Part shown: piece by piece, positions 19,738 to 46,266 of the stretch | How positions within the stretch are numbered: the first letter of the stretch is position 1 | Layout of the letters: the number at the start of each line of letters is the position of its first letter | Assembly: GCA_022844125.1 (NCBI GenBank) | Contig: JALHMI010000006.1 | Coordinates: 1-64,000 of the forward strand | DNA from: Pirellulales bacterium | GTDB taxonomy: Bacteria > Planctomycetota > Planctomycetia > Pirellulales > PALSA-1355 | Length of the DNA stretch: 64,000 bases | Reading direction: 5' to 3' | Translations under genes and position numbers: made by a program | Notes under the pieces: generated by a model | Told to the model about the DNA's origin: nothing | The model's input: the letters and a program-made list of their open reading frames with translations, nothing else | The model's database searches: none

Positions 19738-19766
19738 TTGACATGATGTACTTATGTTTATTACTC
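19738..19766 (+). promoter_or_regulatory. Possible promoter of the DUF5131-tcmP module
   Basis: A consensus TTGACA box at 19738-19743 is followed after 16-17 bp by ATTACTC in an AT-rich run, unlike the surrounding DNA. The ribosome site GGGGAGGG (19773-19780) and GTG start at 19785 follow directly. The weak -10 makes the call tentative. Confidence 0.35.
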
Positions 19767-19784
19767 TTAGGTGGGGAGGGCGTT

Positions 19785-20612
19785 GTGAGCACCAACTCAA
19801 AGATTGAATGGACGGACGCCACGTGGAATCCGGTACGTGGTTGCACCAAGATTAGTCCCGGGTGCGCCCACTGCTATGCCGAAACGTTTGCCGAAAGATT
19901 CCGCGGTGTCCCGGGCCATCCCTACGAGTTGGGATTCGACCTCCGCATTGTGCCGGAGAAGATTGCCGAGCCATTGACGTGGTCGAAGCCGCAGATGGTG
20001 TTTGTCAATTCGATGAGCGACCTCTTTCACAAGGCCGTGCCCGATGAATACATCGAGATAGTCGCTCGCGTGATGGTCGCCGCGAATTGGCACACGTACC
20101 AAGTGCTCACAAAACGTTCGGATCGATTGCGAGACTTGCTGCGAACCAAGTTGTCGTTCGCGGCGAGCGCGCCTCATATTTGGTGGGGAGTCAGCGTCGA
20201 GAATCGCAAGCACGGTTTACCTCGTACTATGCATCTTAGAGAGGCCCGACCCCAGGTCGCGTTTCTATCCATAGAGCCTTTGCTGGAAGATCTCGGCGAT
20301 TTTGATCTAGACGGAATTGACTGGGTGATCGTGGGTGGAGAGAGCGGCCCGGGAGCTCGCCTGATGCAGGCGGAATGGGTTCATCGAATCCGCTCGCTAT
20401 GCCAACGCGATAAGGTTCCTTTCTTCTTCAAACAATGGGGCGGTGTGAGAAAGAGTTCAACCGGTCGTCACTTGGATGGTCAGACATTCGATGCCATGCC
20501 CCCGACCACTAGAAACGAAGTGCCTAGCTCTTCCCTGCGCAAGGAGCTTGCTGCCGAGTACCTTGCGATGTGGCCTCGGCGTCCTTCACGCAAGAACCGA
20601 CGCACAGCATGA
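19785..20612 (+). CDS. DUF5131 (phage Gp37/Gp68 family) three-cysteine protein
   Basis: A 275-residue protein from a GTG start with GGGGAGGG 4-12 bp upstream; an upstream ATG at 19746 gives an unrelated hydrophobic leader. It opens with NSKIEWTDATWNPVRGC and carries the C-x6-C-x2-C cluster at Cys20, Cys27 and Cys30 that gives the three-Cys motif family its name; this resembles the iron-sulfur ligation of radical-SAM-like proteins. Other family hallmarks are FVNSMSDLFH, YQVLTKRSDR, LSIEPLLEDL and VIVGGESGPGAR, and FFFKQWGG near the end. It is followed after 9 bp by tcmP, its usual partner. Biochemical function is not established to my knowledge; a nucleic-acid-modifying radical enzyme is one guess. 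Confidence 0.88.
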   Translation: MSTNSKIEWTDATWNPVRGCTKISPGCAHCYAETFAERFRGVPGHPYELGFDLRIVPEKIAEPLTWSKPQMVFVNSMSDLFHKAVPDEYIEIVARVMVAANWHTYQVLTKRSDRLRDLLRTKLSFAASAPHIWWGVSVENRKHGLPRTMHLREARPQVAFLSIEPLLEDLGDFDLDGIDWVIVGGESGPGARLMQAEWVHRIRSLCQRDKVPFFFKQWGGVRKSSTGRHLDGQTFDAMPPTTRNEVPSSSLRKELAAEYLAMWPRRPSRKNRRTA

Positions 20613-20621
20613 GCTGAACGG

Positions 20622-21881
20622 ATGAGCCGCAAGCACCACGAATGGAAGATCGGGCAAGCGCCGCCGCTAATCCGGCCACACAGCCTGGCCAAACATCGTG
20701 TGCTCAAGGCATATCTCGAACGATACGTCTCCGTTCTGACGTCGAATCCGCGGCAAGAGCGGCTTCGCTTGACTCTCGTGGATGGATTCGCGGGTGGTGG
20801 GCGTTATCTCGACAGTCGCACGAAAGAGGAGCGACCTGGCTCGCCGATGATCATGCTGGAGGCAATGGACGTCGCGGCCGATGATGCGCAGCGAGTCAGA
20901 TCCAAGCCATTTCATCTCGACACACAGTATGTTTTTGTCGAAGAGAAGAAAGACGCATTCGACCATCTCCGTGCTGTATTGAATGATTCGAAGCACGCCA
21001 AGTTGGTTGGCGATCGAATTCACCTCGAACACGGTGAGTTCACCGCTCAGGTACCTGATATCGTTGAATTTGTGAAGAACCGCGGACGCGCTGGGCGGGC
21101 TATCTTCGTACTTGATCAGTTTGGCTACACCGACGTTCCGCTGGAGACGATTCGGTATATCCTTTCGGCGCTCGATAATGCCGAAGTACTTCTGACGTTC
21201 GCGACAGATTCCTTGATCGACTACCTCAGCGGGAGTGATCAAACTCAGCAGATACTTAACAAGGTGGGCATATCGCTCCCCTCTTCAACCATTGCCACCT
21301 TGAAAGAGGCACGAGATTGGCGGCGGGCAATCCAGTTTGCATTGCATGACCAGATTCCGGCACGAACTGGGGCAAGGTTCTACACCCCTTTCTTCATCCG
21401 ATCTGAAGACGCTCATCGAGATTTCTGGCTAATCCATTTGTCGGGACATTTTCGTGCGCGTGATGTGATGGTTGGGCTGCACTGGAAGGAAAGCACCTCT
21501 TTCGCTCACTATGGTCGTTCAGGCTTGCGGATGCTCGGTTACGATCAGCAGCGTGATGCGAAATGGGCAGAGCAGCGGATGCTCCCCGGTTTCTTCTTTG
21601 ATGAGACGGCACTTGCGTCGAGCCAGGAGGAGTTGTTGGAACAGCTGCCAGAACAGGTGTTCAAATTCAAAGATGGCGTTGCATTCTGTGACCTGTTTTC
21701 ATCTCTTACGAACGAGTGCCCTGTAACCGCCGAGATCATGAAAGGCGTGTTGGGCGACTTAGCCAGGCAGGGCTTGGTTCATGTGCGCGACAAGACAGGC
21801 GCAAAAACGCGACGCGCTGCCATTCAACACGATTCGGACATTATCATTCCAAGCCAGCAGAGACGCCTATTCATGCGATAG
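20622..21881 (+). CDS. tcmP: Three-Cys-motif partner protein TcmP
   Basis: A 419-residue protein of the TcmP family, which is found beside three-Cys-motif genes such as the one just upstream. VDGFAGGGRY (residues 53-62) and RPGSPMIML (71-79) look like the entry to a Rossmann methyltransferase-like fold, and FVLDQFGYTDVP (162-173) matches the family's LDPxG position although DP is changed to DQ. The C-terminal ~90 residues (KDGVAFCDLFSSL, VTAEIMKGVLGDLARQGLV) read as a winged-helix DNA-binding module. Codon use is more AT-rich than that of nearby genes, suggesting transfer. Role unknown; defence or mobile-element linkage is inference. Confidence 0.88.
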   Translation: MSRKHHEWKIGQAPPLIRPHSLAKHRVLKAYLERYVSVLTSNPRQERLRLTLVDGFAGGGRYLDSRTKEERPGSPMIMLEAMDVAADDAQRVRSKPFHLDTQYVFVEEKKDAFDHLRAVLNDSKHAKLVGDRIHLEHGEFTAQVPDIVEFVKNRGRAGRAIFVLDQFGYTDVPLETIRYILSALDNAEVLLTFATDSLIDYLSGSDQTQQILNKVGISLPSSTIATLKEARDWRRAIQFALHDQIPARTGARFYTPFFIRSEDAHRDFWLIHLSGHFRARDVMVGLHWKESTSFAHYGRSGLRMLGYDQQRDAKWAEQRMLPGFFFDETALASSQEELLEQLPEQVFKFKDGVAFCDLFSSLTNECPVTAEIMKGVLGDLARQGLVHVRDKTGAKTRRAAIQHDSDIIIPSQQRRLFMR

Positions 21882-22020
21882 CGCTTCATCGAATCGTGGC
21901 ACCCGGCATCCTACAGCGGCAGCGAACGATCCATTCTCCGCCAGAGTACGCCGTGATTTGCCGCCGCTTCGGGGCCGAAGAGTAAGCCACTGGCGATGCC
22001 TCGGCTTCTGCGATGCGCAT

Positions 22021-22353
22021 GAGAAAAAATCGCACTCCGAATCGCCCTTGCCCGCGCGTGTGGCGCGCTGCCGCCGCAACTCGTTCATGCGCAACGCACT
22101 CGCTTGCGCATCGCGCACACCGCCCACGTGTCCACCACCTCTAGTAATCAGGCCAGGATTTCGTTTAGTGTAAGGTCACGACAACAGGTAGAGACCGCAG
22201 CATGTCGCCGACGAATTCGAACACCACTGCGAACTTGGAGAAACCGCGCAGGCTGACCACGACCGCTCGGGCCCGTTTTCAACGCCGCAGAGAGGAGTGT
22301 GTGCGCCCGAAACATCATTTTCACGACTTTCTAAGCGCACACGCGCGAAAAAT
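22021..22353 (+). repeat. ~330-bp dispersed element, copy 1
   Basis: Matches the reverse complement of 45601-45919. Block A (about 22021-22167) shares TGTGGCGCGC, GCGCAACTCGTT-like, CCCACGTGTCCAC, AATCAGGCCAG and TTTCGTTTA in order. Block B at 22297-22326 is identical for 30 bases to 45625-45654 and forms the left side of a hairpin with GCGCACAC downstream. The ~130-bp middle has diverged. Confidence 0.8.
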
Positions 22354-22382
22354 CGTTCGCTTAAAAACAGCCAGGAAACTTT

Positions 22383-22472
22383 TCAGTGTGAAGTGTTCAG
22401 TTTTCGGTGTTCAGCAAGAAAGACAGCGAGCGGTTCTTCATCCTCGCTGAAAACTGAATACTGAAAACTTCA
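22383..22472. repeat. Inverted repeat with AGTTTTC..CTGAAAACT arms
   Basis: AGTGTTCAGTTTTCGGTGTTCAGC on the left pairs with GCTGAAAACTGAATACTGAAAACT on the right across a short loop. It is probably a hairpin-forming dispersed repeat. It belongs to the 825-bp gene-free stretch 21882-22706, which holds three repeat elements and no gene I can support. Confidence 0.6.
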
Positions 22473-22567
22473 AACTCCCCCCGTTCTTTGAAAATCCGAC
22501 CCAGACAGACTCGCCTCTGTCTTCCTTACTGGGTGCCACTCGACGCCGCTGACCAGGGCGCCGGCTC

Positions 22568-45343: not shown

Positions 45344-45600
45344 TTCTCGCCTCGGAAAGGGAGCGGATGGAGATCAGAAGTGGAAGTGTTGCGGCCGCCT
45401 GACTGTTGGCCCGTGAGGTGTCCGCCGGGGATGAATTCTAATCGAGTGGAAACTGGGAAACGAGAGGGAGGCCTGAGGCGACAGGCCCCAGGCCTGGAGG
45501 TCAAAAAACGGGGGTTAGGGGTTACAAACCTGGTTCAAGATGTCGTTTGTCCGGCGGCCCAGGCCAAAATGTTGGGGTGGATGTTTTCCGCGTTCGCGGA

Positions 45601-45919
45601 TTTCGCGCGTGTGCGCCCAAGTTTTCGTGAAAATGATGTTTCGGGCGCACACACCTGCATTGTCGGACCCAAACGGGTGGCACCTGAGCTGCGTGATTTC
45701 ACCAGGCCTCCAATGATGTTGTCGTTTCAGTCGTCTTGTCGAAGTTGGGACACAATCCGCTGAACGTACCATAAACGAAACGCTGGCCTGATTTCAAATG
45801 TTTGTGGACACGTGGGTCGTGTGGGACGGTGTGCGGTGATCGCGGTCCGTAGAAACGAGTTGCGCTGGCGGCGCGCCACACAAGCGGTCAAGTGGCCAGC
45901 GGAGTGCGAATTTTTCAGA
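45601..45919 (-). repeat. ~330-bp dispersed element, copy 2 (reversed)
   Basis: Reverse-complement relative of 22021-22353. The 30-base identical block lies at 45625-45654; here the hairpin stem is a perfect GTGTGCGCCC/GGGCGCACAC (45609-45618 with 45643-45652) around a loop that holds GAAACATCATTTTCACGA on the minus strand. It sits in the 1.46-kb gene-free stretch 45344-46805; 45344-45600 shows no gene. Confidence 0.8.
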
Positions 45920-46266
45920 CATGTCCAGCCCGCCGCGGGTGATTGGTCATGGTGAGATCCACCGTTGTCATCGTCGTACTCCTGAGATAACACTCCGCAT
46001 GTACGCTACCGCAAAGGGTGGCAACATTTCAAGCGCGCGAAGTGAGTGTGGATAGCGATTCGCGATGCGTTAGATGCTGCAAGGAGTTGCGGCTCGAGTG
46101 CGCCACACAGTTTACAGAGTTGCTCCCGCTCTTCGTCGTGCCGTCGCGGTTGGTTCATGCTCTTGGCTGAGCAGGAAGCTAATGGACTACCACAACGGCA
46201 CGACAACACGACGCAAGAATGGGAAGCAGGAATTCAACCATCGCCGTGTCATTGATCGCTGACTCA

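What the first reader, a model, noticed from the sequence alone, without database searches (positions are those of the whole stretch)
22021..22353. ~330-bp element in two opposite copies with an exact 30-nt block
22021-22353 and the reverse complement of 45601-45919 share two blocks in the same order; 30 bases at 22297-22326 are identical and sit in the loop side of a hairpin whose stem is kept (8 bp here, 10 bp in the other copy). The middle ~130 bp has diverged. Conserved loop plus conserved stem suggests a structured RNA or a protein-recognised mobile end, not a protein.
Basis: seen in the sequence. Interest (0 to 1): 0.65.

Follow-up and report, generated by a model that had tools for sequence, protein, structure and literature searches.

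The report
Repeated promoter-bearing noncoding element, 34 copies
The two look-alike stretches are two of 34 copies of a roughly 350-base noncoding DNA element scattered between the genes of this planctomycete; each copy carries its own apparent promoter, most end in the same "keep transcribing" signal that precedes ribosomal RNA genes, and two distant relatives carry unrelated elements built to a similar plan.

Summary
The genome holds exactly 34 full copies of a ~350-bp intergenic element and no solo 3' blocks; 28 relatives have none.

It is not a gene for a protein (no codon signal). In this genome it is not a covarying structured RNA either: the GTGTG/CACAC stem is invariant, and its flanking pairs break as often as they compensate. 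It has no terminal inverted repeats and no target duplication.

The inner ~130 bp is gapless in all 31 distinct copies aligned and holds a promoter-like core (T-GAAATnnGGCCAG-N8/9-TAnGGT) below a GTGTG..GCAACTCGTT..CACAC module. Beyond the 3' end, 22 of 34 copies carry the boxA (NusB/S10 antitermination site) that precedes this genome's own 16S gene.

The promoter core recurs across the order (11 of 147 genomes, control 0). In two other families it heads different dispersed families, most copies also with boxA.

Best reading: a lineage-specific multicopy family of boxA-bearing noncoding transcription units, spread by duplication and conversion. Transcription is inferred, not shown. What the RNA does is unknown; a regulatory RNA or a selfish, promoter-carrying repeat are both open.

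The parts
22017..22378 (+). Copy 1 of the element (5' edge GCATGAGAAAAAATCGCA, 3' edge AAAAACAGCCAGG)
   Evidence: Alignment of 31-33 copies; blastn match 22017-22378
22047..22178 (+). Copy 1, 5' block: gapless in all 31 aligned copies; GTGTG..GCAACTCGTT..GCGCACAC module followed by the promoter-like core
   Evidence: Model R2 hit; alignment A6
22142..22171 (+). Copy 1, promoter-like core: TAGTAATCAGGCCAG (-35 side) to TAGTGT (-10 side)
   Evidence: Core pattern scan; alignment
22296..22374 (+). Copy 1, conserved 3' block with the invariant GTGTG/CACAC arms and the 30-nt identical stretch 22297-22326
   Evidence: Model R1 hit; alignment A5
22483..22499 (+). Copy 1, boxA-like antitermination site GTTCTTTGAAAATCCGA
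   Evidence: same motif as the boxA before the 16S gene at G000:C2:310978
45566..45920 (-). Copy 2 of the element
   Evidence: nhmmer and blastn
45761..45892 (-). Copy 2, 5' block with promoter-like core TTGAAATCAGGCCAGCGTTTCGTTTATGGT (core at 45797-45768)
   Evidence: Model R2 hit; pattern in window with chance expectation 0.02
45577..45655 (-). Copy 2, conserved 3' block
   Evidence: Model R1 hit
46001..46109 (-). Stand-alone copy of the same promoter module upstream of copy 2 (tandem P1): GTGTGGCGC..CGCAACTCCTTGC..CCACACTC..CTTGAAATGTTGCCACCCTTTGCGGTAGCGT
   Evidence: Model R2 hit E=0.002; core pattern

Best explanation
The element is one member of a lineage-specific, 34-copy family of noncoding transcription units. 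An upstream activator region (GTGTG..GCAACTCGTT..CACAC) and a promoter core (T-GAAATnnGGCCAG - 8/9 nt - TAnGGT) start an untranslated RNA of about 200-300 nt. The RNA carries a conserved 80-nt 3' block and, in about two thirds of copies, ends in an rRNA-type boxA, which would load the Nus antitermination complex and protect the untranslated transcript from Rho. Copies spread by segmental duplication with gene conversion or recombination between copies (near-identical inverted neighbours, mosaic modules), not by a defined-end transposase. Shown by sequence: copy number, noncoding nature, conserved blocks, identity of boxA with the rrn boxA, recurrence of the promoter core across the order, analogous families in two other families of the order. 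Inferred: that the promoter fires, that boxA works, and any downstream role of the RNA.
For: Exactly 34 copies by two independent blocks, no solo 3' block, none in 28 relatives. All copies lie between genes, one by adjusting an over-extended gene call. No codon-level selection in any frame of two blocks. 133-bp 5' block gapless in 31 copies. The promoter core also stands alone upstream of ordinary genes, and its module sits in tandem upstream of several elements. The core is found in 11 of 147 genomes (this one included) with 0 for the reversed pattern. boxA-like site at 22 of 34 elements; 19 of 22 genome sites of TCTTTGAMAATTCGA lie at elements, control 0, and one lies ~160 nt before the 16S gene. 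Genome G028: about 20 copies, promoter core - boxA - hairpin with compensated changes. Genome G178: about 11 copies with the core, boxA in some. boxA upstream of long noncoding RNAs and CRISPR arrays is established (PMC7862264). Young pairs: 980 bp identical at C17, ~500 bp at C18.
Against: No expression data exist here. 12 of 34 copies have no recognisable boxA within 200 nt. No intrinsic terminator follows boxA as a rule. The conserved upstream 5' block is larger than a promoter needs. No conserved RNA structure in this genome's family. The G028 species' congener G011 lacks the G028 family apart from one weak match, which fits a selfish repeat as well as a gene family.
Confidence: 0.55

Rival explanations
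1. A selfish, non-autonomous dispersed repeat (MITE-like, or hairpin-ended like palindrome-associated elements of IS200/IS605) that happens to carry a promoter and boxA and is moved by an unidentified enzyme.
For: 34 dispersed copies restricted to one lineage, none in same-family genomes; analogous but unrelated families in G028 and G178, with G028's congener G011 nearly free of them; recent duplicate pairs; enrichment of convergent pairs within 30 kb, 6 of 7, P about 0.001 under random orientation.
Against: No terminal inverted repeats, no target-site duplication; no truncated copies except one remnant at C8:234k, although copies have drifted to a median 62% identity; duplicated units differ in 5' extent; ordinary genes lie between three of the pairs examined.
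Confidence: 0.25
2. DNA sites bound by a host protein (activator, nucleoid or partition protein), the GTGTG/CACAC arms being half-sites; transcription is incidental.
For: Rigid spacing of the 5' block, invariant GTGTG/CACAC arms in both blocks, constant 34-nt spacing in the 3' block, module also at stand-alone promoters.
Against: A 3' boxA is an RNA signal; the promoter core heads the module in one fixed order; 5' and 3' blocks share only CGCGCGTGTGG, barely above shuffles (p = 0.04).
Confidence: 0.1
3. A portable promoter that serves the flanking protein-coding genes.
For: In 14 of 33 copies the next gene downstream is co-directional; copy 2 lies 220 bp before an acyl-CoA synthetase-like gene; stand-alone versions of the core do precede genes.
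Against: In 19 of 33 copies the downstream gene is convergent, often within 130 bp, so a gene-promoter role cannot be general.
Confidence: 0.06
4. A family of small proteins encoded in the 3' half (frame reading GVCVxPKHHxRAFLxPH).
For: That frame has no stop in any copy over the 3' block, and many copies have an ATG upstream.
Against: No excess of synonymous changes (z = 0.5) or conservative replacements; upstream indels shift the frame between copies; no Pfam match for the one translation tested.
Confidence: 0.03

Closest known systems
rRNA operon leaders and CRISPR leaders with boxA
   Same: Promoter followed by a boxA that lets RNA polymerase make a long untranslated RNA; the boxA here matches this genome's own rrn boxA; principle documented in PMC7862264
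   Different: No rRNA or repeat-spacer array follows; 34 dispersed copies; the promoter is not the rrn promoter; boxA lies at the end, not the start, of the conserved unit in this genome
Dispersed intergenic repeats with promoters (Correia elements of Neisseria, ERIC, BOX, RUP; recalled, not tested here)
   Same: A few hundred bases or less, intergenic, many copies, lineage-restricted, can carry promoters
   Different: Those are MITEs or palindromes with inverted termini; here no TIR, no TSD, strongly ordered internal motifs and an rrn-type boxA
Multicopy small-RNA gene families of bacteria (for example Qrr, alpha-r; recalled)
   Same: Several paralogous noncoding genes each with its own promoter
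   Different: 34 copies at a median 62% identity, no conserved fold found, no recognisable terminator, no known partner

Membership tests
MITE / non-autonomous transposon | Terminal inverted repeats | tested here: not met
   First 40 versus reverse complement of last 40 bases: mean longest match 5.3 versus 4.8 shuffled
MITE / non-autonomous transposon | Target-site duplication | tested here: not met
   Flank-flank direct matches not above mispaired flanks (4.8 versus 5.0; 6.1 versus 6.0); fuzzy 5' edge limits the test
MITE / non-autonomous transposon | Autonomous relative sharing the ends | not tested
   No longer element with these ends was seen in the loci read; no transposase search was made
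Structured noncoding RNA (Rfam sense) | Covarying helices | tested here: not met
   0 of 5 predicted pairs covary; extended stem at shuffle level. Met only for the analogous G028 hairpin
Structured noncoding RNA (Rfam sense) | Match to a known family | tested here: not met
   cmscan of the window, of elements and of the analogous loci: none at gathering score
boxA-antiterminated noncoding transcription unit | boxA matching that of the genome's rrn leader, on the transcribed strand | tested here: met
   22 of 34 copies; 19 of 22 genomic sites lie at elements; the rrn site found before 16S
boxA-antiterminated noncoding transcription unit | Untranslated transcript | tested here: met
   No codon signal in any frame of the two blocks tested
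boxA-antiterminated noncoding transcription unit | Active promoter and transcript | not testable with these tools
   Only sequence evidence: conserved core, order-wide recurrence, core also upstream of genes
Small protein gene | Synonymous bias in one frame | tested here: not met
   All z-scores within about 1 of permuted columns, or negative

The most novel reading that the evidence does not exclude
Planctomycetes of this order use a dedicated promoter class (TTGAAATnnGGCCAG..TAnGGT) to drive families of boxA-protected noncoding RNAs that multiply to tens of copies and are wholly replaced between lineages: prokaryotic counterparts of SINE-like, promoter-carrying noncoding repeats, with the same transcriptional head (core promoter plus boxA) but unrelated bodies in each lineage.
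Probability: 0.35. Interest if true: 0.75.

Novelty: new variant of a known kind. Interest (0 to 1): 0.5.

Why it matters
If transcribed, this is a large, undescribed class of bacterial noncoding transcription units, recognisable not by its body, which differs in every lineage, but by a shared promoter core plus the rRNA-type boxA. That gives a simple handle (core pattern with boxA downstream) to find such families in genomes where no RNA homology search would work, and it makes testable why untranslated RNAs outside rRNA and CRISPR arrays carry antitermination signals.

Tried and rejected
Protein coding in the 3' block (a stop-free frame caught the eye; no synonymous bias). Covariation of the stem in this genome and fold stability. 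Composite transposon between inverted neighbours: genes between three pairs are ordinary (sulfatase, helicase, pyrE-like, DnaE-like and others, named from their sequences). Terminal repeats and target duplications. 3' block as an inverted copy of the 5' block (weak). Intrinsic terminators after boxA. Copies in plasmids and viral contigs (one chance hit). Pattern scan of genome contigs: 8 hits, about what chance gives; one, in a planctomycete, was informative. Rfam. Literature on planctomycete repeats, noncoding RNA and boxA: nothing relevant in the library searched. The first alignment was unusable because minus-strand loci had not been turned; redone. A first folding script timed out.

Full report
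Observation. Searching the whole genome shows that these are two of many copies. Sequence models of the 3' block and the 5' block, made from 31 distinct copies, each find exactly 34 full elements in the 6.44-Mb genome and none in 28 relatives, three of them of the same family. An earlier blastn of 57 relatives also found none. There are no solo 3' blocks. The 5' block alone, without the rest, occurs 11 more times at much lower scores.

Anatomy. The element is about 350 bp. From the 5' side: GAAAAA(A/T)TCGCA; a 133-bp block without a single gap in 31 copies, holding CTTG.CC..GTGTG, GCAACTCGTT, GCGCACAC, GTGTCCACC and then a promoter-like core T-GAAATnnGGCCAG, 8-9 bases, TAnGGT; a variable part with a conserved CTGGAGAA; and an 80-bp 3' block GTGTG..GAAACATCATTT..CACAC..AAACAGCC. 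Beyond the 3' edge, at 8-104 bases, 22 of 34 copies carry GCTCTTTGAAAATTCGA or a close variant. Median identity of copies is 62%, yet these motifs stand in all or nearly all of them. In about 10 copies a second module of the same promoter type stands upstream in tandem, copy 2 of this window included (46109-46001; others read).

boxA. The 3' motif is the rRNA-type boxA. The genome's 16S gene is preceded, about 160 bases upstream on the transcribed strand, by GATCTTTGACAATTCGG. Of 22 sites of TCTTTGAMAATTCGA (one mismatch allowed) in the genome, 19 lie at the elements and one at the 16S gene; the reversed pattern gives none. boxA is known to be bound by the Nus complex upstream of long noncoding RNAs such as 16S rRNA, and proposed to work likewise in CRISPR leaders (PMC7862264).

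Not a protein, not a covarying RNA. Codon tests on the two blocks give no synonymous excess in any frame. In this family RNAalifold finds only the invariant 5-bp stem, with no covariation. Extending the stem to 13 pairs gives 76% paired cells against 75% in shuffles. Folding energies are near those of shuffled sequences (mean z -0.6 on the transcribed strand, -0.7 on the other). No Rfam family matches.

Not a classical mobile element. No terminal inverted repeats, no target duplications. Two near-identical inverted pairs lie 13-14 kb apart (C17: 980 bp identical, ending right after boxA; C18: about 500 bp), and a third pair at 7 kb is 88% alike; the duplicated units differ on the 5' side. Of seven neighbouring pairs within 30 kb (positions), six are convergent (P about 0.001). 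Genes between three such pairs are ordinary chromosomal genes. This suggests local duplication, conversion or inversion between copies; the cause of the convergent bias is unexplained.

Wider picture. The promoter core TTGAAATnnGGCCAGnnnTTnnnnTA is found in 11 of 147 genomes of the order, this one included, the reversed control in none. In several it precedes genes, often with a leader that contains a terminator-like hairpin. In G028, of another family of the order, it heads a dispersed family of its own (40 partial matches, about 20 read): core, boxA about 60 bases on, and about 100 bases further a hairpin TTATTGAAC..GTTCAATAA around AGGTACTGGGGCCCCCCAG. That hairpin shows changes on both sides at three pairs and five G-U substitutions at a fourth, with 90% of cells paired against 86% in shuffles. 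In G178, of a third family, the core heads about eleven copies of a third body with inverted TTTTCGGACAC/GTGTCCGAAAA motifs, some copies with boxA. The three bodies share no obvious sequence, apart from core and boxA; the R1 and R2 models of this genome's family do not hit G028. G011, placed in the same genus as G028, has only one weak match to G028's element. So what is shared across the order is the head (promoter core plus boxA) and the habit of multiplying; the body is replaced.

Most likely working. Inference: RNA polymerase starts about 7 bases below TAnGGT, makes an untranslated RNA through the 3' block, and boxA, once transcribed, recruits NusB/S10 and protects the untranslated transcript from Rho. 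What the RNA does cannot be told from sequence. A regulatory RNA family and a selfish repeat both remain open. Downstream genes are convergent in 19 of 33 copies, so antisense read-through into neighbours is a concrete possibility to test.

Noticed in passing
window 19743-21881 (+): Next to copy 1 lie a DUF5131 gene and a gene ending in a GMT-like wHTH domain (TcmP-like three-Cys-motif partner, the latter name from memory); their codon scores are low for their length, so they may be recent arrivals.
   Followed up: no
window 22374-22480: Between the copy 1 3' edge and boxA sits an inverted TTTTCAGTG..GTTCAGTTTTC..GCTGAAAACTGAATACTGAAAAC repeat; similar TTCAGTGTTCAG inserts and a GGCACACGG(A/C)GTGTGCC palindrome flank several other copies.
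   Followed up: no
L117 (OFTM39) and L125 (G131): The promoter core stands 5' of a phage-type terminase small subunit gene (phrog_4102, E 1.5e-16), hinting that the promoter class is also used by prophage-like loci.
   Followed up: partly
L110, L120, L127, L128 and L105 (G000:C6:179k): Stand-alone promoter cores are followed by a leader with a terminator-like hairpin (GAGCCC..GGGCTCTTTTTTT) before a gene, a possible attenuator; the gene after C6:179k carries a DddA-like deaminase domain.
   Followed up: partly
G000 contigs C4, C6, C7, C9, C17, C18: Neighbouring copies within 30 kb are nearly always convergent (6 of 7); no explanation found.
   Followed up: partly
L163 4989-5821 (-): The only 16S rRNA match spans the whole Rfam model (1-1533) in just 833 bases; either a large gap in the match or an assembly or masking effect.
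   Followed up: no
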